NCBI GenBank assembly: GCA_013298845.1
Contig: JAAFJN010000040.1
Location: 1-44,404, forward strand
Reading direction: 5' to 3'
Length of the DNA: 44,404 nt
Source: Chitinophagales bacterium
GTDB lineage: Bacteria > Bacteroidota > Bacteroidia > Chitinophagales > Saprospiraceae
The notes under the pieces were generated by a model that worked only from the letters and a program-made list of their open reading frames with translations, did no database searches and had not been told where the DNA came from. Position numbers and translations under genes: made by a program. Below are positions 2,652 through 23,166 of the stretch, piece after piece (positions within the stretch are counted from its first letter, which is position 1; every line of letters begins with the position of its first letter).

Positions 2652-2669
2652 CTGGCTATCGCAATTAGG

Positions 2670-2782: not shown

Positions 2783-2790
2783 AATATTCT

Positions 2791-3200: not shown

Positions 3201-3443
3201 GAACATCGAACACCGAACACCGAACAATCGAACAATCGAACACCTAACGACGAATATTTGAACATTGAAGTATCTGCTTATCGGACAGTATTATCGCATT
3301 CAATTATTAGCACTAAATGCCATGATTTTTAAATGCGGGACGGGACAAAGCCACATCGTACTCTTTACTTCGGTGTTCGGTGTTCGATGTTCAAATGTTC
3401 GATGTTCAAATGTTCGATGTTCAAATGTTCGATGTTCAAATGT
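3201..3443. repeat. Inverted pair of short tandem arrays (GAACACC family) around a 96-nt core
   Basis: The left arm (3201-3270) is built of units such as GAACACC, GAACATC and GAACAATC. The right arm (3367-3443) is the reverse-complement type, with GGTGTTC followed by a 15-nt period (ATGTTCGATGTTCAA) repeated about four times. The arms face each other across 96 nt of unrelated sequence. The inner ends share GAAGTA on the left and TACTTC on the right, as in the element at 22800-23160. The right arm ends just before the stop codon of the DUF1295 gene. No gene is apparent in the core. Confidence 0.75.
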
Positions 3444-3446
3444 TTG

Positions 3447-4211
3447 TCACCTTTTCCACCACGGGAAAAACGCACTTGTCCGCTTTTTATACGCCTGAAA
3501 CGCCGCGTTATCGGCGTATTTGGCCTCCAGCATCGGGATACCCGATACGTACAATAGCAGAAATGTAATGGTCAGCGGACTAATAATCGCCCAAATTCCG
3601 CCCGAAACGGGCAACACTACCCCAAAAAGCCCCCACCAAAGCACCACTTCGCCAAAATAATTCGGGTGCCGGGTGTAACGCCACAGACCGGTTTCCATAA
3701 TCGCATCGCGGTGTGGTTTGTTTTGGCTAAACACCAGAAGTTGGTAATCGCCAATGGTTTCAAACAAAAAACCAACGATCCACAACAATACACCGGGTAC
3801 GGAATAGATCGAAACCGTGGGCGGCGCGGCGGTCGTCGCCACCAAAATGGGCGCACTGATAACCAGCATAAAAAAGCCCTGCAACACGTACACCTGCAAA
3901 AACGAGCGCAAAACAAACCATTTTCCCCAGGTTTCGCGCCATTGGCGGTACCGGAAATCTTCGGGTTTGTGGCGGCTCCGCCAGGCAATGTGCCCCGATA
4001 ACCGCAACCCCCATAACGTTACCAAAACGTACACCAGCGTGGAAAGCGGGCTGTACGGCTTATTGACCCAACAATAGCCGCAAATCAGGATAAAACCCAA
4101 GCCCCAGGCAATATCCGCCACGTCGTTTCTTTTTCGGATTAACCCGATTACAAACCAAACGCTGGCGTACACCAGCAGCAACCCCGCAACCTGGGTGATG
4201 GTGTGCAGCAT
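3447..4211 (-). CDS. DUF1295 family integral membrane protein (steroid reductase/ICMT-like fold)
   Basis: A 254-residue protein with about six hydrophobic segments, starting at an ATG one nucleotide after the stop of the DUF2177 gene. The C-terminal region holds the family signature: [15 protein letters not shown], then a hydrophobic stretch, then [29 protein letters not shown]. This matches DUF1295, related to 3-oxo-5-alpha-steroid 4-dehydrogenase C-terminal domains and isoprenylcysteine methyltransferases. The RHPNYFGE motif is the likely cofactor or substrate-binding part. The substrate is unknown; a lipid-related role is inferred from the fold and from the partner gene. The 3' end lies beside a tandem-repeat arm. 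Confidence 0.87.
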
Positions 4212-4212
4212 A

Positions 4213-4620
4213 TCAGCGGAGCCATTTTACAATGAAAAAACCGGCGGTACTCACCGAGGCAGTCAGCACAAAACCCCAGATAATATCCACAAAAACGATA
4301 AAGATTGGCCAGTTTTTCAGGGTCGCCAAATTGGTAAGATCGTAGGTGGCGTAAGTAAAAAAGCCAAATAAACCACCCAAAATCAGCGCATTTCGCACGG
4401 AATCCTTTTCAACGGCGGGCAAAATGGCAAAAATGAAAACGCCCGCGACAAACAAAAAATAAAAGACAAATGCCGCCGGCCAATTCACCTGTTCACTCAA
4501 AAAAGCACTCAAGTGTTTTCGGTACAGGTCTTTGGCAATAAAACCGAGCCACGCCATATCAATGACAAAAAAGACGGCGAAGGTTAATAAATAACTAAGA
4601 ATAAGTTTTGAAAATGGCAT
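4213..4620 (-). CDS. DUF2177 family membrane protein
   Basis: A 135-residue, four-helix membrane protein. Family features are the N-terminal helix with [21 protein letters not shown] and the later motif [23 protein letters not shown], both characteristic of DUF2177. A longer frame extends upstream, but the ATG at 4618-4620 gives the family-like start [11 protein letters not shown]; the extension would translate a hairpin region. It lies one nucleotide upstream of the DUF1295 gene, so the pair is almost certainly one transcription unit. The function of DUF2177 is not established. The region 41-93 nt upstream of this start holds interlocking inverted repeats that could form a pseudoknot in its 5' leader. 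Confidence 0.85.
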
Positions 4621-4660
4621 ATTGTGCGGTTGTGTTATTGCAAACAAACACCCGGGGTTA

Positions 4661-4713
4661 TCATATTGTTCTACAATAAAATGTGCATCCCAACAATATG
4701 AAGGGATGCACAT
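4661..4713. promoter_or_regulatory. Interlocking inverted repeats with pseudoknot topology
   Basis: TCATATTGTT (4661-4670) is the exact reverse complement of AACAATATGA (4692-4701). ATGTGCATCCC (4681-4691) is the exact reverse complement of GGGATGCACAT (4703-4713). The order is A, B, A', B', so both stems can form together only as an H-type pseudoknot. The site lies between the GWxTD gene end (4805) and the DUF2177 start (4620), both on the minus strand. It could be the 3' hairpin of the first or a 5' leader control of the second. Confidence 0.7.
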
Positions 4714-4762
4714 CTCAGAAGTATTGCCGCACACCAACTTTTGAGCGCAGCGAAAAAGAAAA

Positions 4763-4798
4763 ATGTCTAAGGTCTAACGTCTAAAGTCTTCTGTCTCA
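4763..4798. repeat. Short GTCTAAR heptamer array
   Basis: Five consecutive 7-nt units of the type GTCTAAG, GTCTAAC, GTCTAAA, GTCTTCT and GTCTCAA lie just after the stop of the GWxTD gene. This is a single arm; no inverted partner was found next to it. It shares the 7-nt period, but not the unit sequence, with the other arrays in the window. Confidence 0.6.
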
Positions 4799-4804
4799 AA
4801 AAAA

Positions 4805-6268
4805 TTAATAATCCTCAAAATACACCCGTGCATTGCGGTTCGTATTGCGTTGCATGGACGTTGCATCCCAGTCGTTATCGCCGTCGTACTGGTTACCCGC
4901 GTTGCGTTTGTAGAGGGCAATTTCCCATTTGGGGTTATTGACTTCACCGCGTGCGTTGGAGTGCAATATGATGTAGTCTTCACCCGCTAAACTGGGGTTA
5001 TAAAACAAAAACTTGACGTTGCGCTGCTTGGTTTTGGGGAAATTATAATACACCCAAATCTCGTAGGGCGGCGCCGAAGGATCATCTTCCACGTGAATTA
5101 AATCGTCGGGGCGACCGTATTTCATGTACGTCCGGCCGCGGTCCGTTTCAAATCCGTAGCGGAAACCGCTGTGGAATTGTTTATCGGCGGCGTTGGCGGT
5201 TTCCATGTATTCGCGCCAAGCCTCTTCTGGTTTATTGGCATTTTGGCGGACAAAGTAGCGAAACAGGAAAAAACGCATTGCTTCGAGGTCGTTGCCCAGC
5301 ATAATATTTTTGAGTTCTTCCGGTTCGGTGCCGTACGAAATATTGGGCGTTAAAGCACTCAAACTGTACCGCAGTTCTTTTTCCTCGAGGTTATTGACAA
5401 ATTGTTTCGACATGGATTCTTTGCTCAGTGCCGCGTCCGAAATATTGAGGTAAGGGTTACTGCGCTGGAAATCAACCGTGCGTTTAGCCAATACTTCGTT
5501 GGCTTTGTTGCGCATTTCGAGGGTAACGCGGTAATTCCCCGTTTCCAACTGCGAAATGTCCATTTGTATCAAAGCCATGTCAATGGTTGACGGGCGTTTT
5601 CGTTGGTTACCCACCGAAATCAGATTCATGGTGCCATTGCCCATATCCCGTTCGACGGTAAAACGCATGGTGTACACCGGGTCATTAATCACCGTACTGG
5701 TGTAATACATTTCGGTGTAAAACGCCAGCGTTGTTGCGTTTCGGTCGTAAAATGCAAAGGGCATGGGTTCCAGGTATTGACCATTTTTGACAAATGGATT
5801 ATCCGAACTGTCCTCTTTAAATCCGCGCAACAGTTGCAATTCGGCCATGTACAACCGTGGCGTATTGTCCACGGTAATGGAACGCACAAAACGCGCGTTG
5901 TTTTTTTCTTGTAATCTATCCGTTGCGGTCACTTCCAAATCGTACACGCCATTGGGTACGGCGAGGCGTTTTACGTCCAATAAATTACCGTAATACTCTA
6001 AAACCGGGCTATTGAGGCTGTATTTTTCGTAAGCCACAATAACGTCGCCTTTTTTTACCAAAATCAATATATCCGCGCTGGATTGATAGTGGGTACTGTC
6101 TAATTTAGTCCACGAAATGGTGAGTGGATCAATTTCCAAATTGACTTCCACGTAACGTTCCGTAGGCGTTGCCATAATGGCGTATGATACGCCAAGATCG
6201 AGGGCTTTGAGTTGGTTGCCCAACAACAGGGCCAAAGCCAAAATGAGTAGTGTGGTTTTGTTTTTCAT
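4805..6268 (-). CDS. GWxTD domain-containing exported protein
   Basis: A 487-residue protein with a cleavable-type signal peptide (MKNKTTLLILALALLLGNQLKA). Its central part is beta-rich. The C-terminal third carries the conserved block KQFHSGFRYGFETDRGRTYM followed by KYGRPDD and, later, PYEIWVYYNF, diagnostic of the GWxTD family found in Bacteroidota. The name-giving GWxTD reads G-F-E-T-D here, a conservative Trp-to-Phe change. The family is exported and of unknown biochemical role. A -7 element TATCTTTG lies on the minus strand at 6291-6298, giving a short leader. The gene is separated from the upstream DUF2807 gene by a hairpin, so it probably has its own promoter. Confidence 0.85.
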   Translation of the reverse strand: MKNKTTLLILALALLLGNQLKALDLGVSYAIMATPTERYVEVNLEIDPLTISWTKLDSTHYQSSADILILVKKGDVIVAYEKYSLNSPVLEYYGNLLDVKRLAVPNGVYDLEVTATDRLQEKNNARFVRSITVDNTPRLYMAELQLLRGFKEDSSDNPFVKNGQYLEPMPFAFYDRNATTLAFYTEMYYTSTVINDPVYTMRFTVERDMGNGTMNLISVGNQRKRPSTIDMALIQMDISQLETGNYRVTLEMRNKANEVLAKRTVDFQRSNPYLNISDAALSKESMSKQFVNNLEEKELRYSLSALTPNISYGTEPEELKNIMLGNDLEAMRFFLFRYFVRQNANKPEEAWREYMETANAADKQFHSGFRYGFETDRGRTYMKYGRPDDLIHVEDDPSAPPYEIWVYYNFPKTKQRNVKFLFYNPSLAGEDYIILHSNARGEVNNPKWEIALYKRNAGNQYDGDNDWDATSMQRNTNRNARVYFEDY

Positions 6269-6290
6269 AAAAATATGATTTTATTGCAAC

Positions 6291-6298
6291 AAAGATAA
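6291..6298 (-). promoter_or_regulatory. -7 promoter element TATCTTTG of the GWxTD gene
   Basis: The octamer matches the Bacteroidota consensus TAnnTTTG and lies 23 nt before the ATG at 6268. No clear -33 TTTG was found at the expected distance, so only the -7 half is supported. Confidence 0.5.
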
Positions 6299-6360
6299 CC
6301 AAGTGCATGTACGCCTGCACGCCCATTGAGCGAATACCGTTTTAACGGGGCCGAATGGGG

Positions 6361-6409
6361 CATTTAAGCGCTTAAATGATCCGGCGAATAACGTGGGTCA
6401 TTCGCCGGA
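6361..6409. terminator. Palindrome plus hairpin after the DUF2807 gene
   Basis: A perfect 18-nt palindrome, CATTTAAGCGCTTAAATG, lies at 6361-6378. It is followed by a hairpin with a 10-bp stem (TCCGGCGAAT at 6380-6389, ATTCGCCGGA at 6400-6409) and a 10-nt loop. It sits directly after the DUF2807 stop on the minus strand. There is no T-run, so intrinsic termination is only possible; protein binding or 3' end protection are alternatives. Confidence 0.5.
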
Positions 6410-6421
6410 CGCGGCACTGGC

Positions 6422-7150
6422 TTACCCTTTTTTAACATCGCCGGAGCCTATTTTGTTGGTCTCGACCTTGGGGTTTCCGAAATAAAAAATATCACCGCTG
6501 CCCACCAGATTGGCCTCAAGTTGGTCGTCAACCCCGCAATAAATGGTGCCACTACCGGCCAAATTGGCTTCACAGCGCGCGCTGCGCAACTTTTTTCCTT
6601 CAAAAGTTCCACTACCACCCAGCGCAAGGGTTGTGTTGGTGCTTTTGCCCGAGAGACGGATGGTGCCGCTGCCGCCCAAATTAGCGTCGCAGTTTTCTAC
6701 CTCCAGGTCATCAACGGTGATACTGCCCGATCCGCCGAGGTTGGCGTCAAAATTGCTGCGCCGAATGGCCGATTTGGCCACAAAATCGCCGCTGCCCATC
6801 ATGTGTACTTTGCGCAAATCGGGGGATGTAATTCGGATAACAATGCGCTGATTTCCAATGGAAAAATCGTTTTCGGCGTTTATTTCCAACATATCGCCTT
6901 CCACCCGCGTCTGGATTTTTTCCATCACGTCGGAGGGGGCGTCAATTTGCACGGAATGGACTTCGCCCTTGCGCCATTCAATATCGGCACCGATGTGAGA
7001 GGCGATACCCGTAAAGGTGTTCAGGGAGCGATCTTCCTGCACCGAATTATGGCCGGTGACCTCCTGAATGGTGTACATGGTTTGGTCGTACACTTTTTTG
7101 CCATACCAGGCAATGCCGAGAACAACGGCCGCGATAAGTACGTTTTTCAT
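6422..7150 (-). CDS. Head GIN domain protein (DUF2807), envelope-anchored
   Basis: A 242-residue protein with an N-terminal membrane segment (MKNVLIAAVVLGIAWYG) that may be a signal anchor. The rest is a repetitive beta structure with the DUF2807 pattern: GSGDFVAK, LGGSGSITV, LGGSGTIRL, LGGSGTF, LAGSGTI, LVGSGDIFY and IGSGDVKKG. The short spacing of the G-S-G turns implies a right-handed beta-helix-like stack. The family is often labelled putative autotransporter adhesin, but no translocation domain is present, so that label is not supported here. The gene starts 11 nt after the M20 amidohydrolase stop and is probably cotranscribed with it. Confidence 0.87.
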   Translation of the reverse strand: MKNVLIAAVVLGIAWYGKKVYDQTMYTIQEVTGHNSVQEDRSLNTFTGIASHIGADIEWRKGEVHSVQIDAPSDVMEKIQTRVEGDMLEINAENDFSIGNQRIVIRITSPDLRKVHMMGSGDFVAKSAIRRSNFDANLGGSGSITVDDLEVENCDANLGGSGTIRLSGKSTNTTLALGGSGTFEGKKLRSARCEANLAGSGTIYCGVDDQLEANLVGSGDIFYFGNPKVETNKIGSGDVKKG

Positions 7151-7161
7151 AGACTGTAATT

Positions 7162-8457: not shown

Positions 8458-8631
8458 GATTTAAAACAATTGTTATTAATGATGAAATAATTAGGCCCTT
8501 TTTTGGGCAAAATCACCGTTTCATCCTTACTTACGGGCAAAGAAAGTTATTATTTTTAAGTTTTGGCGATTCTGGAGCATAATTTAAAACAAATTTCGTT
8601 CTTTTGCCCTTTGATAAAGTAAAACAACTGC

Positions 8632-12369: not shown

Positions 12370-12412
12370 AAATGTGCGTTTCGACTTCGCTCAACGCACA
12401 TTTTTATTGGCT
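12361..12412. terminator. Perfect 20-bp hairpin with loop TCGACTTCGCTC, overlapping the helicase stop codon
   Basis: The arms 12361-12380 and 12393-12412 are perfect reverse complements enclosing the 12-nt loop TCGACTTCGCTC. The left arm begins with the last two sense codons and the TAA of the helicase gene, so the right arm is an inverted copy of coding sequence. The outer stem carries a T-run (ATTTTTATT), so it can serve as a terminator. A small hairpin (GCACATT at 12422-12428, AATGTGC at 12432-12438) follows. Confidence 0.8.
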
Positions 12413-12465
12413 TTGCTTGACGCACATTTTCAATGTGCTCGACGCATACATGACGTATATGTTTA

Positions 12466-12541
12466 TTGATTTTGCAAAATGCACAAAAACGTGCGTTGAG
12501 CGAAGTCGAAACGCACGTTTTTGTGCATTTTGCAAAATCAA
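12466..12541. repeat. Perfect 32-bp hairpin with the same loop (inverted orientation)
   Basis: Arms 12466-12497 and 12510-12541 are perfect reverse complements around GAGCGAAGTCGA, the reverse complement of the loop of the neighbouring hairpin. The innermost stem (GTGCGTT/AACGCAC) is shared with that hairpin, but the outer stem differs. It lies 36 nt before the PruA start, in its probable 5' leader or promoter region. Confidence 0.8.
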
Positions 12542-12576
12542 AACAAGCAATAAACAAATAAAAAATTTAACATAAA

Positions 12577-14133
12577 ATGCCCGACGCAATTTTTACCATT
12601 CCACCACCATACAACGAACCAATTTATAACTACGGTCCGGGATCACCGGAAAAAATCGCGCTGAAAAAGGCGCTTGCCGAGGCCAAAGCCCAACAAAAAG
12701 ACATTCCCATGTACATCGGGGGGGAACACGTGTTTACAGCCGAAAAAGGGACCATGCACCCGCCCCACGAAACGGCACACACGTTGGGACAGTATTCAAA
12801 AGGTTCCGCCGAGCACGTAAACGCCGCCATTCAGGCCGCTTTAAAGGCCAAACCCACCTGGGAAGCCATGGCTTGGGAAGAACGCGCCGCCATTTTTCTG
12901 CGCGCCGCCGACCTGCTCACCGGCCCGTACCGCGCGCGCATGAGCGCCGCAACCATGCTTTGTCAAAGTAAAAATGCCTACCAGGCGGAAATTGACTGCA
13001 TTTGTGAATTGGCCGATTTTTGGCGCTACAACGTGCATTTTATGCAGGAAATTTACAAACAGCAACCCGTGAGTAGCAAAACGGTGTGGAACCGTACCGA
13101 CTGGCGTCCGCTCGAAGGTTTTGTGTTTGCTCTGACACCGTTCAACTTTACGGCCATTGCCGGTAACCTGCCCTCGGCACCGGCGATGTTGGGTAACGTT
13201 GCGGTGTGGAAACCCGCTGAATCGCAAATTTATTCGGCGGCCCTGATTATGGAAATTTTGGAAGAAGCCGGCTTGCCCGCGGGCGTCATTAACCTCATTT
13301 ACGTGGATGGCCCAACGGTGGGTAATATCGTGTTTGAGCACCCCGAATTTGCCGGTTTGCATTTTACGGGTAGCACGGGTGTATTCCAGCATTTGTGGAA
13401 AACCATTGGTGCCAACATTGCCAAATACAAATCGTACCCGCGCATTGTGGGCGAAACGGGCGGCAAAGACTTTGTTTTGGCCCACGCTACCGCCGATCCG
13501 AAAGCCGTCGCTGTGGCCCTCGGACGGGGTGCTTTTGAATACCAGGGCCAAAAATGCTCCGCTGCCTCGCGAGCGTACGTTGCGAAAAGCATTTGGTCCC
13601 AAGTGCAGGAATACCTGCTGGAAGACCTTCGCCACATGAAAATGGGCACCACCGAAGATTTTACCAATTTTATCAACGCCGTTATTGACGAACGCGCTTT
13701 TGATAAAATCAGTAAATACATTGACAGCGCCAAACAATCCGACAAAGTGCAGGTGTTGGCCGGTGGTCATTACGATAAATCCAAGGGTTATTTTATCGAG
13801 CCAACGGTGTTGCTCACCAGCGATCCGAACTATACCACCATGTGTGAGGAGATTTTTGGCCCGGTGTTGACCATTTTTGTGTACGATGACGCTGATTTTG
13901 ACAAAACCCTCGACATTCTCGACCGCACGTCGCCGTATGCGCTCACGGGTGCATTTTTGGCCAAAGACCGCCAGGTTATTCAGTATGTGAACGACCGCCT
14001 GCGCCACAGCGCCGGTAACTACTATATCAACGATTCCATGCTGAACATGTACCGCTGGTTGTCGCCGCGTACCATGAAAGAAAACATGGTGCCACCAACG
14101 GATTTCCGTTATCCGTTTTTGATGGAGGAATAG
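12577..14133 (+). CDS. pruA: L-glutamate gamma-semialdehyde (P5C) dehydrogenase PruA with an in-frame internal deletion
   Basis: A 518-residue aldehyde dehydrogenase of the 1-pyrroline-5-carboxylate dehydrogenase family, which oxidises glutamate semialdehyde to glutamate with NAD+ in proline catabolism. The sequence follows the family closely: GFVFALTPFNFTAIAGNLPSA, GLHFTGSTGVF, VGETGGKDF with the general-base Glu293, and YQGQKCSAASRAY with the catalytic Cys327. Near the end, AGNYYIND (to Asp486) runs straight into SMLNMYRWLSPRTMKE. Family members have about 25 more residues at this junction, including the QPFGGARASGTNDK motif that forms the aldehyde-anchor loop. The protein is shorter than the usual 540-545 residues by just that amount and the frame is intact. 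Identity is confident; activity is doubtful unless the gap is an assembly error. No proline dehydrogenase gene is adjacent. Confidence 0.93.
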   Translation: MPDAIFTIPPPYNEPIYNYGPGSPEKIALKKALAEAKAQQKDIPMYIGGEHVFTAEKGTMHPPHETAHTLGQYSKGSAEHVNAAIQAALKAKPTWEAMAWEERAAIFLRAADLLTGPYRARMSAATMLCQSKNAYQAEIDCICELADFWRYNVHFMQEIYKQQPVSSKTVWNRTDWRPLEGFVFALTPFNFTAIAGNLPSAPAMLGNVAVWKPAESQIYSAALIMEILEEAGLPAGVINLIYVDGPTVGNIVFEHPEFAGLHFTGSTGVFQHLWKTIGANIAKYKSYPRIVGETGGKDFVLAHATADPKAVAVALGRGAFEYQGQKCSAASRAYVAKSIWSQVQEYLLEDLRHMKMGTTEDFTNFINAVIDERAFDKISKYIDSAKQSDKVQVLAGGHYDKSKGYFIEPTVLLTSDPNYTTMCEEIFGPVLTIFVYDDADFDKTLDILDRTSPYALTGAFLAKDRQVIQYVNDRLRHSAGNYYINDSMLNMYRWLSPRTMKENMVPPTDFRYPFLMEE

Positions 14134-14140
14134 TTTTTTA

Positions 14141-14333
14141 GTGATGAGTTAGGAGAGATGAGAGATAAGAGATGAGTGGGTTTGTTTTTATTATTTAAAG
14201 TCTTTAAAATTAAAATATTGAACGTAATGACTTTTTTTAAATCAATAAATAAAGCACGCGCGGTGACATCCTCTAAATCACTCATCTCTCATCACTCCTC
14301 ACTTATCACTCCTCACTCCTCACTTATCACTTT
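14141..14333. repeat. Inverted pair of heptamer arrays (GATGAGA/CTCATCA type) around a 100-nt core
   Basis: The left arm (about 14141-14178) reads as 7-nt units such as GATGAGT, GATGAGA and GATAAGA. The right arm (about 14279-14333) has the complementary type: CTCATCT, CTCATCA, CTCCTCA, CTTATCA. The core between them is 100 nt. The right arm lies inside the predicted signal region of the following lipoprotein, so the array appears to have been captured as coding sequence. Confidence 0.72.
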
Positions 14334-15297
14334 TTTTACTTTCTTTTTGTTCGCTTGCGGTAGCCCTGAAACCCACTACGTTGATACGGCTACCTGCTCT
14401 CCGAATTCGGAACAAGACACGGCGGCCGTGGGCACTACCACTGTTCGCGGTGCTTTATTGGGTACCCGATTTTCCTCCCTGGAAGATTTAAAAAAAGTCA
14501 TTCGAATCGAATACGAAAATGGCGTTGACCCCACCGACAGCACCGCGCCGGTGAGCCGGGTAGTGCGAGTGCGTCATTGCAGCAGCGGCCGCGAGGTGGT
14601 GAGTGTTTTGGAAACGGGTACGAGCCAGGGCGATTTTATCAAAGCGCGGTACAACGGTGCTTTTATGGATAAGTTGTCGATATTGACAGGTTGCCCGTAT
14701 GCCGTGATGAACCGGCGGGACTTAGATAAAATTTATGCACTTTTGCGGTTTAGACCCGAATGGTTTGGGTTAAGTGATGTGGCTTTTTTTGAAATGGCCC
14801 GAACGATGGTTACTCATATCAATACCCCCGATTTGGCTTTTATAAATCCCCGCGACAGTACCGAAAAAGGGTATCTGAATACCTTTAACCACATGACCGC
14901 GCAGGCTTTTATTACGTCCTGCTTTTCGGAAGATTTGGCCGATTTTATTGCCGATGTACACGAACGTTACCGCCAGCCGGAGTTGATTTCCGGGAAGTTC
15001 ACAGCGGCGCAATTGGCCGATTTAAACGAAGGCCCCGTGGATAATTACGTGGATATTATTAACAATGAATGGGGACAGGAATTAGGCAAACAACTCCAAC
15101 AAAAATACCACATCTGCCAAAACACCCACTGGACGCCCCAACTACTCGCTGTTTACCTGAATGATCTGCAAGCCTATTTCAGTTGGGCTTTGCAAATTGG
15201 GTTTGTCCCTTTTACTCCTGAAGATCCAAAGGTTGTTCGGTTTGCCCAAAAAATAAATACGGTGATAAATGGCCGTCTTAGTTTTGACCAAAAATAA
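14227..15297 (+). CDS. Hypothetical lipoprotein whose signal region is encoded by a heptamer array
   Basis: A 356-residue protein from the ATG at 14227; the frame also allows an ATG at 14176. A hydrophobic stretch ending FFTFFLFAC with a Cys after Ala is a plausible lipobox, so an envelope lipoprotein is predicted. The 20 or so residues before it (SLISHHSSLITPHSSLIT) are the translation of the CTCATCA-type heptamer array, which lengthens the n-region well beyond normal. The mature part has two cysteine-containing segments (VRVRHCSSGREV, TGCPYAVMNRRD) and a helical C-terminus. I recognise no domain. It is convergent with the pentapeptide-repeat gene, and a shared hairpin lies between them. The start is uncertain because the array may have displaced an older one. 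Confidence 0.68.
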   Translation: MTFFKSINKARAVTSSKSLISHHSSLITPHSSLITFFTFFLFACGSPETHYVDTATCSPNSEQDTAAVGTTTVRGALLGTRFSSLEDLKKVIRIEYENGVDPTDSTAPVSRVVRVRHCSSGREVVSVLETGTSQGDFIKARYNGAFMDKLSILTGCPYAVMNRRDLDKIYALLRFRPEWFGLSDVAFFEMARTMVTHINTPDLAFINPRDSTEKGYLNTFNHMTAQAFITSCFSEDLADFIADVHERYRQPELISGKFTAAQLADLNEGPVDNYVDIINNEWGQELGKQLQQKYHICQNTHWTPQLLAVYLNDLQAYFSWALQIGFVPFTPEDPKVVRFAQKINTVINGRLSFDQK

Positions 15298-15337
15298 CCA
15301 ACACCGGTAAGAGCGGTGCCGCAAATCGGTTATTTTT
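15290..15337. terminator. Bidirectional terminator between convergent genes
   Basis: AAAAATAACC (15290-15299) pairs with GGTTATTTTT (15328-15337), and CACCG (15302-15306) pairs with CGGTG (15314-15318) inside it. The A/T-rich ends give a U-run in either direction. It overlaps the last codons of both flanking genes. Confidence 0.65.
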
Positions 15338-16544: not shown

Positions 16545-16556
16545 ACCTTTTTTGCG

Positions 16557-16590
16557 CAAAAATAGATAAACTGCGCGTTTTAGCGCCAAA
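16557..16590 (-). promoter_or_regulatory. Promoter of the pentapeptide-repeat gene (TTTG-N22-TATTTTTG)
   Basis: On the minus strand TTTG (16590-16587) is followed after 22 nt by TATTTTTG (16564-16557), matching the Bacteroidota primary sigma consensus. The ATG at 16544 lies 12 nt downstream, giving a very short leader. Confidence 0.6.
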
Positions 16591-16617
16591 AAGGTGCGGC
16601 GGTAGCGTGATATTATC

Positions 16618-16625
16618 TACTTTTG
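16618..16625 (+). promoter_or_regulatory. -7 element TACTTTTG of the U32 gene
   Basis: TACTTTTG fits TAnnTTTG and lies 29 nt before the ATG at 16655. It is arranged divergently with the pentapeptide gene promoter. No clear -33 partner was found. Confidence 0.5.
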
Positions 16626-16654
16626 CGGCCGTAAATCTGAGGTTTACGCATTCC

Positions 16655-18520
16655 ATGAGAAGAAAAATTGAAATTCTGGCTCCGGCCAAAAATTTGTATC
16701 AGGGTATGGCTGCGGTAAATGCCGGGGCCGATGCCGTTTATATTGGCGCGCCTTTGTTTGGTGCCCGCACCAACGCCACCAATTCGGTGGAGGATATTGC
16801 CGAAATGGTGCGTTATGCGCATTTGTTTAAAGCAAAAGTGCTGGTGACGCTCAATACCATTTTGTACGATAATGAATTGGAGCCCTGCCGCAAACTGATT
16901 TGGGAACTCTACCACATCGGGGTAGATGCCATCATTATTCAGGATATGGGTATTTTGGAAATGGATTTGCCACCCATTGCCCTTCACGCCAGTACGCAGG
17001 CCAATAACCGCGACGCCGGTCACGTGAAATTTTTGGGCGATGCAGGTTTTAAACGGGTGGTTTTGGCCCGCGAACTGAACCTCGATCAAATAAAAGACAT
17101 CCACGCAGCTACCGGCGTGGAACTGGAGTTTTTTGTCTCTGGTGCTCTGTGCGTGTCGTTCAGCGGTAATTGTTACATGAGTATTGCCAACGGCGAACGT
17201 TCGGCCAATCGCGGCTCCTGTGCCCAAAACTGCCGTTTGCCTTACCAACTCATTGACGGTAAAGGCGAAACGCTGATCGAAAGCAGCCACCTGCTTTCCA
17301 TTAAAGATTTGGATTTGAGCGACGAATTGCCCAATCTCATCAACGCCGGTATTAGTTCTTTTAAAATTGAAGGCCGTTTGAAAGACATTGTTTACGTTAA
17401 AAATAATACTTCTTATTTGCGCAAAAAATTGGATGCCTTTTTGGAAGCCAATGCCGACCGGTACGAAAAAGCGTCGTCGGGGCGGACTTTTTACAATTTT
17501 GAACCCGAATTGGACCGCAGTTTTAACCGGGGATATACTGACTATTTTGTTAACCACCGACGCGAAAAAATTGGCTCTTGGGAAAGTCCCAAATCAAAAG
17601 GCCAATACATCGGGAAATTATTGGAAATAAAGGCCAATGGCTATTGCATCGAAAATTACGAGCAATTGAACAACGGCGATGGCCTGTATTTTATCAATGA
17701 AAAAGGTATTGCCGATGGTACCCTCGTAAACATCATCGTCAACGATTTGGTGGTGCCCAATGAACTAAAACCGCTGCCCATTGGTACCGAAATTTACCGC
17801 AACCTCGACGCCGAATTCAACCGCATGATTGAAAACGAAAACAGCGCCGTGCGAAAAATTGGAGTAAATATGTTGTTCGGCGAAACCGAAACCGGGTTTA
17901 GTTTGCAGGTCACCGATGAAGACGGTCACACGTACACCGCCTACCTCGACACCCCCAAAGAACCTGCTAAAAATACGGAAGGCGTCATCGAAAATATCAC
18001 CAATAATCTGGCCAAAACGGGTAACACGCCGTTTATGTCCGGCGAAATCGTGGTGGAATTGTCGCAGCCCTGGTTTTTGCCCAATTCAAAAGTCAACGAA
18101 ATTCGCCGCACTGCCCTGGAGCAATTGGCCGAAGTACGCATCCGGGAATACCACCGCGAAGAACAGCCGATTGTACCCACCGAACACCCATATCCGGTGC
18201 AATCCCTCGATTTTACCTATAATGTATCCAATAAACTGGCGCGGGCATTCTACAAACGCCACGGCGTTACCGACATTGAAAAAGCCTTTGAGTTACAATG
18301 GGACCCCGGAAAATCTCGGGTAATGGTGACCAAATATTGCGTTAAATACGAATTGGGTAAATGTCCTCGCTACCAACGCAGCACAATGGGCGAAAAATTG
18401 GCCGAGCCACTCACCCTTAAACACGGCGAAGTAGAGTACAAACTCAAATTCAATTGCAAACCTTGCGAAATGGAAATTTGGGAAAAAGACGCCGAGTTGG
18501 TTTTGGAAGATGAAGATTGA
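16655..18520 (+). CDS. U32 family peptidase-like RNA hydroxylation protein (RlhA/TrhP type)
   Basis: A 621-residue protein. The U32 core is clear: IEILAPAKNLYQGMAAVNAGADAVYIGAP at the N-terminus, ALHASTQANNRD, then the cysteine signature SGALCVSFSGNCYMSIANGERSANRGSCAQNCRLPY, and KIEGRLKD. The C-terminus (KYCVKYELGKCPRY, then FNCKPCEMEIW) adds further conserved cysteines typical of the longer members. U32 proteins with this layout are known to hydroxylate RNA (23S rRNA C2501 by RlhA, tRNA uridine-34 by TrhP) and probably carry an iron-sulfur cluster; the old peptidase label is doubtful. The length is closer to RlhA. The frame is open upstream, but the ATG at 16655 gives the family start and follows a promoter element. 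A heptamer array begins right after the stop. Confidence 0.88.
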   Translation: MRRKIEILAPAKNLYQGMAAVNAGADAVYIGAPLFGARTNATNSVEDIAEMVRYAHLFKAKVLVTLNTILYDNELEPCRKLIWELYHIGVDAIIIQDMGILEMDLPPIALHASTQANNRDAGHVKFLGDAGFKRVVLARELNLDQIKDIHAATGVELEFFVSGALCVSFSGNCYMSIANGERSANRGSCAQNCRLPYQLIDGKGETLIESSHLLSIKDLDLSDELPNLINAGISSFKIEGRLKDIVYVKNNTSYLRKKLDAFLEANADRYEKASSGRTFYNFEPELDRSFNRGYTDYFVNHRREKIGSWESPKSKGQYIGKLLEIKANGYCIENYEQLNNGDGLYFINEKGIADGTLVNIIVNDLVVPNELKPLPIGTEIYRNLDAEFNRMIENENSAVRKIGVNMLFGETETGFSLQVTDEDGHTYTAYLDTPKEPAKNTEGVIENITNNLAKTGNTPFMSGEIVVELSQPWFLPNSKVNEIRRTALEQLAEVRIREYHREEQPIVPTEHPYPVQSLDFTYNVSNKLARAFYKRHGVTDIEKAFELQWDPGKSRVMVTKYCVKYELGKCPRYQRSTMGEKLAEPLTLKHGEVEYKLKFNCKPCEMEIWEKDAELVLEDED

Positions 18521-18521
18521 A

Positions 18522-18636
18522 TTAGTGAATAGTGAATAGTGAATAGTGAATAGTGAATAGTGAAAAATCAACTTTTCACTTTTCACTATTCACTATTCAC
18601 TCTTCACTTTTCACTCTTCACTTTTCACTCTTCACT
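18522..18636. repeat. Back-to-back inverted heptamer arrays (GTGAATA / CTATTCA, CTTTTCA)
   Basis: The left arm (18522-18566) has about six GTGAATA units. After a spacer of about 6 nt the right arm (18573-18636) has about nine units of CTTTTCA, CTATTCA and CTCTTCA. The period is 7 nt throughout. The array starts 2 nt after the stop of the U32 gene and can fold into a long hairpin, so it may end that transcript. Confidence 0.8.
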
Positions 18637-18791
18637 AAAAAAAATCGTTTTCGCACGGGGAATTGTCCGAAAATGAACAAGTGGCACTTTTTAAAGTTGT
18701 TGATTATCAATGGTTTATCGGGTGGCATTAAAATTGTCTGAGTAAAAGAAAGGATTGGCATGGTTCAGTCCTTATCTTTAAATACGACGTT

Positions 18792-21170
18792 ATGCTCCAC
18801 CATCATTTCAACATTACGCTGCGCAAATTAGCCCGCCAAAAAAACTTTACCCTGCTGAATGTTTTAGGTTTAGGCCTGAGCGTGGGGTGCTGTCTGATGA
18901 TTTTTACCTTGTTGCGGTACCATTTTAGTTTCGATCACCACCACAGCAAGGCCGAACGTATTGTACGGGTGGTGATGGACATCAAATCGGATGATGCGTT
19001 TCCTTTTCCCGGTGCGCCCATGCCCATGAGTAAGGCTTTGCGCGACGAGGCCGCTTTTGTGGAGAAATCAGCCATGCGTTCGGCTTTGGGTGAAGTTTTA
19101 GTGATGCCCCAAACCCCGGCGCAACATAAGTTTCTCGAAAAAAACGATGCATTTGCCTGGGTTGAACCCGATTATTTCGATATTTTGGATTTGCCCTTTG
19201 TGGCGGGCGATGCTTCGGTGCTGCATGAACCCAACACCGTGGTGCTGACCGAAAAAATAGCCGTTAAATACTTCGGCCACACCAATGTCATTGGGCAATC
19301 GCTGCGGATAGACAATAAAGTGGATTTGCGCGTGGGCGGGGTTTTGCGGGATATTCCGGTGAATACCGATTACCCGCAGGAATTATTGGCCTCGTGGGTG
19401 ACCTTAAAAAACCTGCCCGAATCAAAAACGTATTACGATGCGTGGAACGGTGCGCGAGGCAGCAATTATTGTTTTGCGCTGCTGCGGCCGGGGCATACGC
19501 AGGCGGAAATGGACAACCTTTTGTTGCAATTTCGCAAAACCCACCCGCACCCGGAACTTGCCGATTTGTTCCAGTATAAATCTTTGCCGTTTCTGGGAAT
19601 GCACTTCGACACCGATTACGGCTTTGCCACCAACAAAAAATACCTGTATGCGTTGGGTATTATCGGTTTGTTTTTGCTGCTGACGGCCTGCGTTAATTTT
19701 ATCAATATGGCCACCGCGCAGGCGCTCACGCGTATCCGGGAGGTGGGCGTGCGCAAGGCTTTGGGCAGTACCAAAAGCCAGTTGTTTTGGCAGTTTTTAA
19801 CCGAAACCGGCCTGATTGTATTGGGGGCTATGCTCGTCGGGTGGTTGTTGGCTAAGGTTAGCCTTCCTTACCTGAACCAATGGTTAAAAATTACCCTTTC
19901 GCTCCGCAGTGGCGGGGTGGCAATGGCGGGTTTTATGGCAATTTTAGCGGTGTTGTTGACCTTTTTGGCCGGTTTTTACCCGGGTTGGGTACAAGCGCGG
20001 ATTCATCCGGTGTACTCCATGAAAGGCGCCACCGATGCCAGCGGAAAAGGTGGTTTTCAGGTGAGGCGGTTCTTGGTGGGTACCCAATTTGCTATTTCTC
20101 AATTGCTGATTATTTGCGCCGCCATTGTAACGGCCCAACTCCAGTACGCACAGGATTCCGATTGGGGTTTCAGGCCCGGGGCCATTGTTTTATTAAAAGT
20201 GCCCGAAACCGAAAAATCGGCCAATTTGCAGCAACAAATTCAAAAAATAGCCGGGGTACAGCGGGTGACGCGTTGTTATCAGCCACCTGCATCCACCACC
20301 AACAACCAAAACGGGGTCACTTTTGACAATCGTCCCGACCCCGAACCTTTTATGATTACCGATAAACCGGCCGATGAGCACTACCTCGAAACATTTGGCC
20401 TGAAACTGGTGGCGGGGCGTAATCTTTTTCCCGCCGATTCGGCACGGGAGTTTATTGTCAACGAAACATTTGTCAAAAAACTTAACCTCGCCTCCAACGA
20501 AGATATTTTGAATAAAACCATTCAGGTAGGAGCGCTAAAAGGACCGGTAATCGGGGTAGTGAAAGATTTTCACAACTGGAGTTTACAGGGAGCCATTGCG
20601 CCAATGGTGCTGAATACCCAACCCCGTAACTACATCACCTGTGCCGTACTGCTGCACCAAGGCAACCCCGAACCGGCATTGGCGCAAATGAAAGCGGCCT
20701 GGGAAACGCAATTTCCCAACTACTATTACGAGTACGAATTTATGGATAACCGCTTTCAGGAATTTGTGGAAAGCGAAGCCACTACCATGCGGTTGGTGCG
20801 CACGTTTGCGGCGGTTGCGGTATTTATTGGTTGCATGGGTTTGTTTGGTCTTTCGACCTTTCTGATTGCCCGTAAACGCAAAGAAATTGGTATTCGGAAA
20901 ACGTTAGGTGCCAATATTGCCGGTATTTTATGGTTATTTGGCAAAGAATACGCCCGTTTAATTGGTATTGCGTTTGTGGTGGCCGCGCCATTTGCGTGGT
21001 GGGTGATGAACGGCTGGTTAGATGATTACGTGTATCGGGTCTCGGTCGGAGCCGGTGTATTTTTACTGGCTTTGTTATCGTCGGTGGTGATTGCGGTATT
21101 CACCATTGGGTTTCAAAGTGTAAAAGCAGCCCTGGTCAATCCGGTGCAAAGTTTGCGCAGCGACGAATAA
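18792..21170 (+). CDS. ABC transporter permease, FtsX/MacB type with two permease modules
   Basis: A 792-residue protein of the common Bacteroidota putative permease class. The N-terminus (HHFNITLRKLARQKNFTLLNVLGLGLSVGCCLMIF) gives the first membrane helix and the conserved lead-in. A periplasmic MacB-like core follows (about 45-280). Three helices at about 285-415 contain the FtsX signature TRIREVGVRKALGSTKSQLFWQFLTE. A second periplasmic domain (about 440-665) is followed by three more helices with the matching signature RKRKEIGIRKTLGANIAGILW. Such proteins couple an ATPase to periplasmic work, in export or signalling. No ATP-binding subunit is adjacent, so its partner must be elsewhere. 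A convergent terminator hairpin follows the stop. Confidence 0.9.
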   Translation: MLHHHFNITLRKLARQKNFTLLNVLGLGLSVGCCLMIFTLLRYHFSFDHHHSKAERIVRVVMDIKSDDAFPFPGAPMPMSKALRDEAAFVEKSAMRSALGEVLVMPQTPAQHKFLEKNDAFAWVEPDYFDILDLPFVAGDASVLHEPNTVVLTEKIAVKYFGHTNVIGQSLRIDNKVDLRVGGVLRDIPVNTDYPQELLASWVTLKNLPESKTYYDAWNGARGSNYCFALLRPGHTQAEMDNLLLQFRKTHPHPELADLFQYKSLPFLGMHFDTDYGFATNKKYLYALGIIGLFLLLTACVNFINMATAQALTRIREVGVRKALGSTKSQLFWQFLTETGLIVLGAMLVGWLLAKVSLPYLNQWLKITLSLRSGGVAMAGFMAILAVLLTFLAGFYPGWVQARIHPVYSMKGATDASGKGGFQVRRFLVGTQFAISQLLIICAAIVTAQLQYAQDSDWGFRPGAIVLLKVPETEKSANLQQQIQKIAGVQRVTRCYQPPASTTNNQNGVTFDNRPDPEPFMITDKPADEHYLETFGLKLVAGRNLFPADSAREFIVNETFVKKLNLASNEDILNKTIQVGALKGPVIGVVKDFHNWSLQGAIAPMVLNTQPRNYITCAVLLHQGNPEPALAQMKAAWETQFPNYYYEYEFMDNRFQEFVESEATTMRLVRTFAAVAVFIGCMGLFGLSTFLIARKRKEIGIRKTLGANIAGILWLFGKEYARLIGIAFVVAAPFAWWVMNGWLDDYVYRVSVGAGVFLLALLSSVVIAVFTIGFQSVKAALVNPVQSLRSDE

Positions 21171-21183
21171 TTAGTCAATTCAA

Positions 21184-21243
21184 CCAAAAATAAAAACCCC
21201 GACCATTTCGACTTCGCTCAATGGTCGGGGTTTTTATTTTTGG
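21184..21243. terminator. Perfect 24-bp bidirectional terminator with loop TCGACTTCGCTC
   Basis: Arms 21184-21207 and 21220-21243 are perfect reverse complements around the 12-nt loop TCGACTTCGCTC. The stem holds CCCCGACCATT next to an A/T tract, giving a strong intrinsic terminator in both directions between the convergent permease gene and the acidic-tailed gene. The loop is identical to that of the hairpins at 12361-12412 and (inverted) 12466-12541, though this stem is unrelated. Confidence 0.85.
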
Positions 21244-21251
21244 AATAGTTT

Positions 21252-22010
21252 TTACACTTCTACTTCAATATCCACTTCTACCACTTCTTCCGGCTCTACC
21301 ACAACGGCCTCCACGGGTGCGGAGCAACCGGTATTGCCATTGGTGGTTTCTACCACAAACGATTGGATGATGTGTGGTCCCAACGCACGGGGCGTCCAGG
21401 TACCCGAAAAAGTAGCGGCACTGCTCCACGTGAGCGGGATACTCGCCACTTGCTGGCCCTCTTCGTTGGTAATAACAGCGCGGACCTTAAAGTTTTTACC
21501 CGGCCAAAATTCGTTGTCAATTTCGCAACCGCACATCATGTAAACGTTGACCGATAATGCGCCGGGTTGCTGGTTATAAAAAAACAGGGGCGATTCGGGT
21601 TCAACGACATTGGTGAGCAAACCGGGCACTACCACCACCACCGATGTTGGCCCCATCAGGACAATGCCCGGCCATATCATTTGTTGTTGACTGGCGGTGG
21701 CCATCAGGATACCGTTGTGGTAAACGTCAACGGTAAATGTGAGTTGGACGGGTGTGTCTGGGTTGAAACTGAACGTGTAAGAATAGGCGTTGGTTTTATC
21801 AACGGGCGTACCCCAGGGGACGCTTTTCATAATTTTGTCGGTATCGCCCGAACCATCGCCGGTAACTGTTCCCTGATTAATCGGAGCATTTACTACTCCG
21901 GCAACGATATTACCTTCGGGATCGGTAACCGTTAAATAGGCGACGCCGTTTTGGCCCTGACCGATAAATTTGCCACCCCAGGCAATGGCATAAACTTTAA
22001 TTGTTGACAT
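21252..22010 (-). CDS. Hypothetical protein, beta-sandwich-like with acidic tail
   Basis: A 252-residue protein that I cannot place in a family. It has no signal peptide: the start MSTIKVYAIAWGGKFIGQGQNG is polar. The body is rich in alternating beta-type segments (QLTFTVDVYHNGILMATAS, FKVRAVITNEEGQQVASIPLTW, GPHIIQSFVVETTNG) and looks like two immunoglobulin-like domains. It ends in a markedly acidic tail (VVEPEEVVEVDIEVEV). A short CGCEIDNEFWPG segment contains two cysteines. It lies 60 nt after the DUF4291 gene and may share its transcript. A cytoplasmic or non-classically exported structural protein fits what is seen, but this is a guess. Confidence 0.7.
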   Translation of the reverse strand: MSTIKVYAIAWGGKFIGQGQNGVAYLTVTDPEGNIVAGVVNAPINQGTVTGDGSGDTDKIMKSVPWGTPVDKTNAYSYTFSFNPDTPVQLTFTVDVYHNGILMATASQQQMIWPGIVLMGPTSVVVVVPGLLTNVVEPESPLFFYNQQPGALSVNVYMMCGCEIDNEFWPGKNFKVRAVITNEEGQQVASIPLTWSSAATFSGTWTPRALGPHIIQSFVVETTNGNTGCSAPVEAVVVEPEEVVEVDIEVEV

Positions 22011-22070
22011 AATTTAATTCTCTCTGTTTTTAAACATGCTGGGCGTTTTCTGTTAAAAGTAAGGAAAACC

Positions 22071-22724
22071 CTACACATGCTCGTTGTTGGTTAAACCAAT
22101 TCTTGTTCTAATGCGCGCATCACGTGGTTCGTATATCCATTCTTGGGGGACCTGTAATTGCGTAATGTTCTTTTGTAGAATCAATTTCTTTTGTTCCTGC
22201 GCAAAGGTAGTAAGATCAATGATTTCGAGGGCCATTTCTTGCGCGAATTGTTCGAGTAATTTGCCTTTAATTCCCAACTGAATGGCTTTTCGAACCTGCG
22301 GAGCACCGTAAATATCGTGGTCGGGGTCCCATTGCAGGCGCACCGGGTGCTTTTCTAAGGCCGCTTTCCATTCGGCTACATCTGTATAATGGTCGGGTTG
22401 AAAGGAACTGAAGACAGATTCACTCAAGATATGATCAAAATCGCTTTTTTTGAGCCAAATGCCCAATACGCGTTGCTGATTTTCTTTATCAGCCCATCCG
22501 CAACGGTGCATCATCCACAAAAAATTGGGTTTGATCCACGACATCCGACTAAAACTGTACGCGCTGCCACCAAACTGTTGGTGCTCCAGGGCGTAGTTGG
22601 CAATGGCGTGGTTAAATGCTTGATAAACAAGGATTTGTTCGTCGGTTTGTTGGGCTAAAATATGTTTCCCACTGGTCGGAATTGTTTCTAAATATTGAAA
22701 GTAAGGAATTGTTTCCGGGTGCAT
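22071..22724 (-). CDS. DUF4291 domain-containing protein
   Basis: A 217-residue cytoplasmic protein. Family landmarks are present in order: QTDEQILVYQAFNHAIANYAL, SFSRMSWIKPNFLWMMHRCGWADK, RVLGIWLKKSDFDHIL and VRLQWDPDHDIYGAPQVRKAIQLGIKG. These match DUF4291, a widespread family without established function. The frame stays open 58 codons upstream, but that extension is the translation of the GAACACC-type array (repeated VRCSMFDV-like residues), so I place the start at the ATG at 22722-22724, which gives the expected MHPETIPYFQYL. An unrelated beta-rich gene follows 60 nt downstream. Confidence 0.88.
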   Translation of the reverse strand: MHPETIPYFQYLETIPTSGKHILAQQTDEQILVYQAFNHAIANYALEHQQFGGSAYSFSRMSWIKPNFLWMMHRCGWADKENQQRVLGIWLKKSDFDHILSESVFSSFQPDHYTDVAEWKAALEKHPVRLQWDPDHDIYGAPQVRKAIQLGIKGKLLEQFAQEMALEIIDLTTFAQEQKKLILQKNITQLQVPQEWIYEPRDARIRTRIGLTNNEHV

Positions 22725-22799
22725 TTTGAGTTGTTTTTTTGGTTTAAAAATAAATTGCGTACGAATAACGCATAATTGTGGCGCACAGTTCCCGTCTCC

Positions 22800-23160
22800 G
22801 AACATTTGAACATCGAACACCGAACACCGAACATCGAACATCGAACACCGAACACCGAACATCGAATTTTGAACTGCGAATTTTTTAATGTCGAACACCG
22901 AACACCGAATGTCGAACGCCGAAGTAATGTTTAATTGAATAAATTTAAAGTGTTCCTCGGTGTGTTACACGAAATTATCCAAGATTCCGGTGCTGATGAT
23001 GGAGGGTGGCAAAACTGTCTCATCAGCGAATACTTCGGTGTTCGGTGTTCGACATTCGGTGTTCGACATTAAAAAATTCGGTGTTCGGTGTTCGACATTA
23101 AAAAAATCGCAGTTCAAAATTCAAAATTCGGCGTTCGATGTTCGGCGTTCGATGTTCAAA
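22800..23160. repeat. Large inverted pair of GAACACC-family heptamer arrays around a 106-nt core
   Basis: The left arm (22800-22924) is a run of 7-nt units (GAACACC, GAACATC, GAATTTT, GAACTGC). The right arm (23031-23160) is its imperfect reverse complement, with the same order of variant units, including TTTTTTAATGTCGAACACC-like segments on both arms. The core is 106 nt. The inner ends are GAAGTA and TACTTC, identical to those of the element at 3201-3443. It fills the gap between the DUF4291 start and the TonB receptor stop; I see no gene in it, although its lack of stops lets long spurious frames run through. Confidence 0.82.
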
Positions 23161-23166
23161 CCCTCC

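What the first reader, a model, noticed from the sequence alone, without database searches (positions are those of the whole stretch)
3201..23160. Inverted pairs of short-period tandem arrays with about 100-nt cores: a recurring element of unknown kind
Seen: at 3201-3443, 14141-14333 and 22800-23160 two tandem arrays face each other in inverse orientation across cores of 96, 100 and 106 nt. A fourth pair at 18522-18636 has almost no core, and a single arm lies at 4763-4798. The unit is mostly 7 nt, but its sequence differs by locus (GAACACC, GATGAGA, GTGAATA, GTCTAAR). A related inverted pair at 2670-2782 has a 9-nt unit. A shared period and architecture with unshared sequence suggests a common process (template switching, slippage or an enzyme copying short units) rather than one transposon. 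Most loci sit at gene 3' ends. Heptamer repeats are known from cyanobacteria; whether these Bacteroidota pairs have been described as a class I cannot tell.
Basis: seen in the sequence. Interest (0 to 1): 0.75.

Follow-up and report, generated by a model that had tools for sequence, protein, structure and literature searches.

The report
Intergenic palindromes with short-repeat arms
Many gaps between genes in this Saprospiraceae bacterium hold a palindrome whose two arms are built of short tandem repeats, mostly 7 letters long, and related species show the same shape built from other repeat words, which points to a recurring genomic process as well as to spreading copies.

Summary
In 1.32 Mb sampled of the 6.37-Mb genome, 44 of 54 neighbouring array pairs are inverted, and in 42 of these 44 the left arm is the purine-rich one. 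Cores run from 4 to 303 nt (median about 88; 25 of 44 between 60 and 130), so "about 100" is a mode, not a rule. 0 of 44 pairs lie between divergent genes.

"Unshared sequence" is only half right: units fall into families shared across the genome, and many cores are related. Three copies with 96% identical cores carry both arms in different flanks, so at least one unit type disperses; no target duplication was found. Arms change fast in place (458 vs 48 nt at one site between species 95% identical). The two arms of one element resemble each other more than arms of other elements do, including a mirrored non-repeat stretch in the window. Related species hold pairs with other units and periods (7-10), once at the same gene junction.

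Best reading: dispersed intergenic palindromes whose arms grow by slippage and are copied into each other by fold-back template switching, tolerated at gene ends. The mobiliser and any function are unknown.

The parts
2664..2705 (+). left arm of the 9-nt-unit pair (GGATTTAAA-like)
   Evidence: 81% identical to the reverse complement of 2744-2785 over 42 nt
2744..2785 (-). right arm of the 9-nt-unit pair
3198..3254 (+). left arm, family A (GAACAYC) with irregular units
3255..3368 (.). core, related to the dispersed family A core
   Evidence: BLAST to other cores of the genome; match G000:C35:3264-3316
3369..3444 (-). right arm, family A; ends 2 nt before the 3447-4211 minus-strand gene's stop
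4762..4789 (+). single array, GTCTAAR unit, no partner found
14140..14176 (+). left arm (GATGAGT/GAGATGA), starts 6 nt after the stop of the aldehyde dehydrogenase gene
14177..14276 (.). core, 100 nt, no related core found in the sample
14277..14332 (-). right arm
18511..18564 (+). left arm (GTGAATA), overlapping the end of the U32 peptidase gene
18571..18636 (-). right arm (GTGAARA read on the minus strand); core between the arms is 6 nt
22808..22923 (+). left arm, family A, with an irregular stretch at 22864-22892
22924..23033 (.). core, 110 nt, weak links to other family A cores (22- and 28-nt matches)
23034..23157 (-). right arm; 23094-23122 mirrors 22864-22892 at 28 of 29 positions

Best explanation
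A class of intergenic palindromic repeats. One unit is a core (4-303 nt in the sample) between two inverted arms made of short tandem repeats, mostly 7 nt. SHOWN: at least one unit type (both arms plus core) has dispersed within the genome; arrays change length and unit order at fixed sites; the two arms of one element resemble each other more than arms of other elements of the same family. INFERRED: arms grow and shrink by replication slippage; when a strand folds back, polymerase copies one arm from the other, so that changes are mirrored and the palindrome persists while its sequence turns over. INFERRED: selection removes copies from coding and promoter DNA, leaving them at gene 3' ends; family B/C arms carry stop codons in all frames when read inwards, so they can sit right on a gene's last codons. 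UNKNOWN: how units spread, and whether the long hairpins do anything for transcript ends or mRNA.
For: Inverted pairing 44 of 54 and one polarity 42 of 44 (P 3e-6 and 1e-10). Three copies with cores 96% identical over 70-72 nt, arms on both sides, 60-nt flanks unlike by eye. Array lengths 458/48 and 250/78 nt at the same sites of two genomes 95% identical. Arm similarity within elements against permuted partners, 14-mers: family A 0.56 vs 0.29 (P 0.0005, n 18), family B 0.35 vs 0.24 (P 0.011, n 23). Mirrored non-heptamer stretch 22864-22892 / 23094-23122, 28 of 29 positions. Gene context: 0 of 44 divergent, 0 of 119 strong arrays deep inside genes, 103 of 119 with the purine strand pointing away from the nearest gene. 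Family B three-prime sides within -20..+8 nt of the stop codon in 29 of 29; 39 of 46 family B arms close all three frames within 24 nt read inwards. Template switching homogenises inverted-repeat arms in yeast (PMC8604942, abstract start in the listing) and converts imperfect to perfect palindromes (PMC4060949, passage).
Against: No mobilising enzyme found and no target duplication (P 0.64; PF01797 counts do not follow array abundance). Arm homogenisation is uneven: family B 18-mers P 0.07; wider alignments only P 0.011 and 0.030, and an element's own partner is the best match in just 3 of 18 and 1 of 23; of two sister elements on C6 one shares no 14-mer between its arms. Elements of different age with different units could also make arms look alike. 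The polarity seen in G000 fails in relatives: about 5 of 14 inverted pairs in the G008 and G015 loci have the opposite order with cores of 3-13 nt. In G009 inverted and direct pairs are 4 and 4.
Confidence: 0.5

Rival explanations
1. Ordinary non-autonomous transposons (MITE-like, or REP/BIME-like) moved in trans by a transposase; the arrays are merely slippage-prone terminal repeats, and arm resemblance reflects common descent of the ends.
For: Dispersed units with related cores; family B outer ends often start at the same phase, AGTGAA; same-side left arms of the three sister copies share 0.44-0.52 of 14-mers.
Against: No target duplication; no transposase gene found between arms in the intervals looked at; RAYT-type PF01797 genes do not follow array abundance; related cores carry different arms, including a 9-nt unit; other species build the same shape with other units and periods.
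Confidence: 0.3
2. The pairs arise in place, again and again, at gene junctions: slippage makes an array, fold-back copying mirrors it, and no transposition is needed. The shape is conserved, the words are not.
For: At the junction of C4:84985 G013 has a pair of other heptamers; beside the gene at C4:83541 four genomes each hold a different repeat-rich or hairpin sequence, by eye; pairs with periods 8 and 10 in G007 and G009.
Against: Three copies with 96% identical cores and both arms at unrelated sites need dispersal; units are shared by many loci of one genome; at C4:87545 only G000 has a pair.
Confidence: 0.15
3. The pairs are functional 3'-end elements (terminators or mRNA-stabilising hairpins) kept by selection.
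For: Stable hairpins (four of four whole elements, z -4.5 to -15.9); 18 of 44 pairs between convergent genes, 0 between divergent genes.
Against: Where T-runs occur (15 of 44 family B/C ends, counted by eye) they precede the left arm or, as A-runs, follow the right arm, the reverse of an intrinsic terminator; orthologous junctions lack pairs in G005 and G008 at two of three sites and in G013 at one; 12 of 17 family B five-prime sides lie within 30 nt of a start codon, odd for a terminator of the upstream gene alone.
Confidence: 0.05

Closest known systems
TAACTGA heptamer direct repeats of Beggiatoaceae, Cyanobacteria and five Bacteroidetes (MacGregor 2015, PMC4679880; abstract and passages read)
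   Same: Intergenic tandem heptamers, sporadic between related species, some long arrays in Bacteroidetes, stop codons in the repeats noted.
   Different: One heptamer only, described as direct repeats (one indirect repeat mentioned), mostly just upstream of start codons; no inverted pairs around a core in the passages read.
BrickBuilt MITE with an internal minisatellite, Porphyromonas gingivalis (PMC4596501; abstract and outline read)
   Same: Bacteroidota, intergenic, multi-copy, tandem repeats inside an element with inverted ends.
   Different: 23-nt unit in one internal array between small inverted ends; here the arrays themselves are the inverted arms, with 7-10-nt units.
GTAG- and CGTC-tagged REP palindromes (PMC3733652; passages read)
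   Same: Many-copy intergenic palindromes, mostly downstream of genes, some without a dedicated transposase, reported also from Bacteroidetes.
   Different: Short tagged stem-loops (8-9-nt stems for the CGTC type) without tandem-array arms. The GCCCGTCGTAG motif at many B/C core ends contains CGTC, but I saw no tagged short stem-loop; not formally tested.
Cyanobacterial short tandemly repeated repetitive (STRR) heptamers (recalled, not read here)
   Same: Heptamer arrays between genes.
Template-switch correction of quasipalindromes (PMC8604942 and PMC7202029, abstract starts in the listing; PMC4060949, passage)
   Same: Homogenises the two arms of an imperfect inverted repeat.
   Different: As seen in those texts a mutational process at short inverted repeats, not a genome-wide class with tandem-array arms.

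Membership tests
MITE | terminal inverted repeats | tested here: met
   44 inverted array pairs in the sample
MITE | target-site duplication | tested here: not met
   mean best flank match 0.95 vs 1.03 in permuted flanks, P 0.64, 44 pairs
MITE | many copies with a conserved interior | tested here: inconclusive
   14 of 18 family A cores and 11 B/C cores cluster, 17 of 44 cores single, two of them too short to compare; three 96% copies of one core
MITE | related autonomous transposon with the same ends | tested here: inconclusive
   none in the few intervals examined; no genome-wide search by ends was made
REP/BIME | short tagged stem-loop (GTAG or CGTC at one end) | not tested
   no formal search; none seen by eye at arm ends
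REP/BIME | intergenic, downstream of genes | tested here: met
   0 of 44 pairs divergent; 0 of 119 strong arrays deep inside a gene
REP/BIME | association with RAYT transposase genes | tested here: inconclusive
   PF01797 in 20 of 25 genomes including G000 (6 matches); G018, which has GTGAAAA arrays, has 0, and G019, with no family A hit, has 9
Intrinsic terminator | hairpin followed by a T-run in the gene's direction | tested here: not met
   T-runs, where present, precede the left arm
Heptamer tandem arrays (STRR/TAACTGA type) | intergenic tandem arrays of period 7 | tested here: met
   other unit sequences and inverted arrangement
Known RNA family | match to an Rfam family | tested here: not met
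   0 matches at gathering threshold in the window

The most novel reading that the evidence does not exclude
Gene junctions in Bacteroidota carry a self-sustaining palindrome engine: slippage plus arm-to-arm copying builds and rebuilds inverted short-period arrays from any word of 7-10 nt, so that related species hold the same architecture in unrelated sequence, while successful words also spread through a genome. What is inherited is the process and the shape, not the sequence.
Probability: 0.3. Interest if true: 0.8.

Novelty: new variant of a known kind. Interest (0 to 1): 0.6.

Why it matters
Bacterial heptamer arrays have been described as isolated curiosities. Here they are the arms of an abundant palindrome class with a consistent polarity in this genome and a strict place at gene ends, and sister species use other words. 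If the arm-copying reading is right, these loci are a natural record of template switching and palindrome upkeep in bacteria. The arrays also reshape protein C-termini (one case by eye) and trouble assembly: nine G008 contigs in the listing begin within 30 bases of such an array.

Tried and rejected
One fixed transposon: rejected, because units, periods and cores vary and related cores carry different arms. A fixed core of 100 nt: rejected. Target-site duplications: none. RAYT as mobiliser: counts do not follow arrays. Autonomous version with a gene between arms: a 2-kb interval in G008 (L080:4858-6842) holds two small ORFs that did not look like transposases by eye (no family search was run on them); C7:18074-19471 holds a long ORF not identified further, and C7:67363-67838 no ORF above 240 nt. 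Empty-site test: relatives of G000 are too distant for aligning intergenic DNA, so only gene-anchored comparison was made. Of three gene-order probes, L065 gave three comparable genomes of seven searched (G023 had only scattered matches, three had none), L279 and L286 gave no usable junction. The dispersed 150-nt core of a G007 element has no period-7 array beside it in any of 6 G009 copies fetched, which speaks against that core always travelling with arms. The reversed-pattern control for family B is not clean, since a GTGAAAA array read backwards fits the pattern; 48 of 394 other phylum genomes with a hit is therefore a rough guide only. Rfam: nothing.

Literature: ten searches turned up no description of inverted heptamer pairs in the titles and abstract starts that I saw; six exact-sequence strings were in no paper. 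The library lacks most subscription papers, so absence is weak evidence. Opened: PMC4679880, PMC3733652, PMC4060949 (passages), PMC4596501 (abstract, outline).

Caveats of sampling: 75,961 of the 1,320,365 sampled bases and the window were taken because arrays were known there; the rest are consecutive stretches chosen by contig number. Loci of G008, G015, G018 were fetched because of array hits. Genes came from a crude script of mine (931 genes). The orientation rule (purine-rich strand) is mine and is ambiguous for GTCTAAR and AAAAATC units. Family names A-E are mine.
Full report
WHAT IS THERE. The window is contig C35 of a 6.37-Mb genome in 89 contigs. Relatives of its U32 peptidase gene at 83-90% identity are metagenome bins named mostly Saprospiraceae, also Saprospirales, Chitinophagales, Lewinellaceae. 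Every locus in the finding is real. The inverted arms of the four heptamer pairs and the 9-nt pair are 81-89% identical over their aligned parts. Whole elements fold far better than shuffled sequence: z -13.3 (18510-18645), -15.9 (22795-23165), -4.5 (14130-14345), -6.3 (3195-3450). Two 150-nt pieces that cut off most of the second arm do not (z 0.35 and -0.08).

MORE THAN CHANCE, AND GENOME-WIDE. In 844 kb, period-7 arrays number 67 at score 12 or more against 0 in a Markov control; the other periods from 4 to 12 give 0-8. The family A pattern GAACANCGAACANCGAA has 431 hits in the genome and 0 reversed. Family B, GTGAANAGTGAANAGTGAA, has 760, with 47 for the reversed pattern, a control that is not clean for this unit. 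In the 1.32-Mb sample there are 119 strong arrays (140 at the lower cut-off). Of 54 neighbouring pairs within 400 nt, 44 are inverted and 10 direct (P 3e-6); 8 of the 10 direct ones are at most 25 nt apart and may be one interrupted array. In 42 of 44 inverted pairs the left arm is the purine-rich one; the two exceptions have cores of 4 and 25 nt. 81 of 119 strong arrays belong to an inverted pair. Cores run from 4 to 303 nt, median about 88, 25 of 44 between 60 and 130.

WHERE THEY SIT. With a crude gene caller, 18 pairs lie between convergent genes, 26 between co-directional genes and 0 between divergent genes; all non-overlapping junctions number 147, 523 and 167 (P 9e-5 by junctions, 3e-7 by intergenic bases). 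0 of 119 strong arrays lie more than 60 nt inside a gene, and 103 of 119 have the purine strand pointing away from the nearest gene end; among unpaired arrays it is 30 of 38. Family B arms lie from -20 to +8 nt of the stop codon at 29 of 29 three-prime sides, family A arms at 0 to 549 nt (29 sides). The units explain this: 39 of 46 family B arms close all three frames within 24 nt read inwards, while 24 of 31 family A arms close none. At C4:84985 the gene ends inside the array, and by eye its protein lacks about 20 C-terminal residues present in G005 and G008. Family B arms lie within 30 nt of the start codon at 12 of 17 five-prime sides, in several cases with an A-run between (by eye). Bacteroidota lack Shine-Dalgarno sequences (PMC6847099, abstract start in the listing); that the A-run helps initiation here is my inference.

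SHARED OR NOT. Units fall into families (my names): A GAACAYC, B GTGAARA/GTGAATA, C GATGAGT/GTTAGGA, D GTCTAAR, E AAAAATC. By BLAST, 14 of 18 family A cores join one cluster, though some links rest on array-like sequence; 11 B/C cores cluster, mainly through 18-22-nt ends of the GCTCTACGACGGGCA type; 2 form a pair and 17 are single, two of them too short to compare. A family A core probe gave 40 matches in the genome, 40 of 75 candidates having been scored, some only 25-50 nt long. In the window, the 3201 core belongs to this cluster, the 22892 core only by 22- and 28-nt matches, and the 14140 and 18523 cores are single. Cores with the GCCCGT(C/T)GTAG type of end are seen with B, C or D arms, with 9-nt TTGAATTTG arms, or with different arms on the two sides (by eye), so core and arms are modular.

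DISPERSAL. A 73-nt core probe finds itself and two further copies at 96% identity. All three have family B arms on both sides; their 60-nt flanks look unrelated by eye. Two C6 elements also share a core at 98%. Over 44 pairs no target duplication is detectable.

TURNOVER. G007 and G009 are near-complete genomes, 95% identical where aligned. Of 8 array sites in a 200-kb block of G007, the G009 site is occupied in 8 of 8: lengths differ hugely at two (458/48, 250/78), moderately at one (27/49), by 1 nt at four, and one has another arrangement. These genomes use GTTGTTC-type units and also have inverted pairs of period 8 and 10; inverted to direct pairs are 6 to 3 in G007 and 4 to 4 (1 ambiguous) in G009.

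ARM-TO-ARM COPYING. The two arms of an element share more 14-mers than arms of different elements (A 0.56 vs 0.29, P 0.0005; B 0.35 vs 0.24, P 0.011). With 18-mers B gives P 0.07. Wider alignments give P 0.011 (A) and 0.030 (B), and the own partner is the single best match in only 3 of 18 and 1 of 23 elements. In the window, 22864-22892 is mirrored at 23094-23122 at 28 of 29 positions although it is not heptameric. Among the three sister copies, opposite arms of different copies share 0-0.21 of 14-mers, arms within a copy 0.15-0.79, left arms of different copies 0.44-0.52 and right arms 0.07-0.36: common descent and arm resemblance are both visible. The two C6 elements are mixed: one shares 0.40 between its arms, the other 0. 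Template switching is known to homogenise inverted-repeat arms (PMC8604942, abstract start; PMC4060949, passage).

OTHER SPECIES. Family A occurs in 12 of 39 relatives searched besides G000, abundantly only in G000 (431 hits; next 32). G008 has inverted pairs of AGTGATG- and GAATATCGAACACC-type units, G015 of GTTATTA- and AGAAGTG-type units; about 5 of these 14 pairs have the opposite polarity with cores of 3-13 nt. In 80 Bacteroidota loci period 7 is the commonest of 6-10 (20 of 35 arrays); pairs there are 4 inverted, 3 direct, 2 ambiguous, one of the inverted being G008's own, too few to test. At the C4:84985 junction G013 has another heptamer pair and G005 and G008 none; at C4:87545 only G000 has a pair; beside the gene at C4:83541 each of four genomes has its own repeat-rich or hairpin sequence, by eye, but the other neighbouring gene was found conserved only in G005.

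JUDGEMENT. This is a class of intergenic palindromes whose arms are short-period arrays. Dispersal of at least one unit type and fast turnover in place are shown. Arm copying by fold-back template switching is supported, unevenly. Selection for gene ends is inferred from placement and stop codons. Mobiliser and function are open. It works like MITEs and REPs in being a dispersed intergenic palindrome, but the target duplication of MITEs was not found and the tagged stem-loop of REPs was not tested, so I file it under neither.

Noticed in passing
window 2792-2977: Short CRISPR-like array: three identical 36-nt repeats (starts 2792, 2867, 2942) with two 39-nt spacers, between the 9-nt pair and the 3201 element. 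Cas genes were not looked for.
   Followed up: partly
L293 (G008:C4, about 48,100-48,380): Tandem array of roughly 29-nt units, each holding an AGGTGACACCT-like palindrome, next to the gene that carries a heptamer pair in G000.
   Followed up: no
L292 (G005:C34, about 169,080-169,480): Inverted arrays of an 8-nt-like unit (GTGTTTTG) around a core that is itself an inverted repeat with TTTCACACAGATG ends; the same core sequence lies behind the U32 gene in L106.
   Followed up: no
L222-L227 (G009): A dispersed repeat of about 150 nt (start near AATGGTTCGTGAAGAATTTGAGTAGTGACAAAATGACTTAA), six copies read, followed in several copies by other dispersed repeats nested into each other.
   Followed up: partly
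L309, L310 (G000:C56 and C67): Period-9 TTGAATTTG arrays beside GCCCGTCGTAG-type core ends: on both sides in L310, on one side with a heptamer arm on the other in L309.
   Followed up: no
G189 and G331 (other family of the same order): Two genomes outside the family with many GTGAANA arrays (278 and 98 pattern hits): shared ancestry, transfer or convergence of the same heptamer is open.
   Followed up: no
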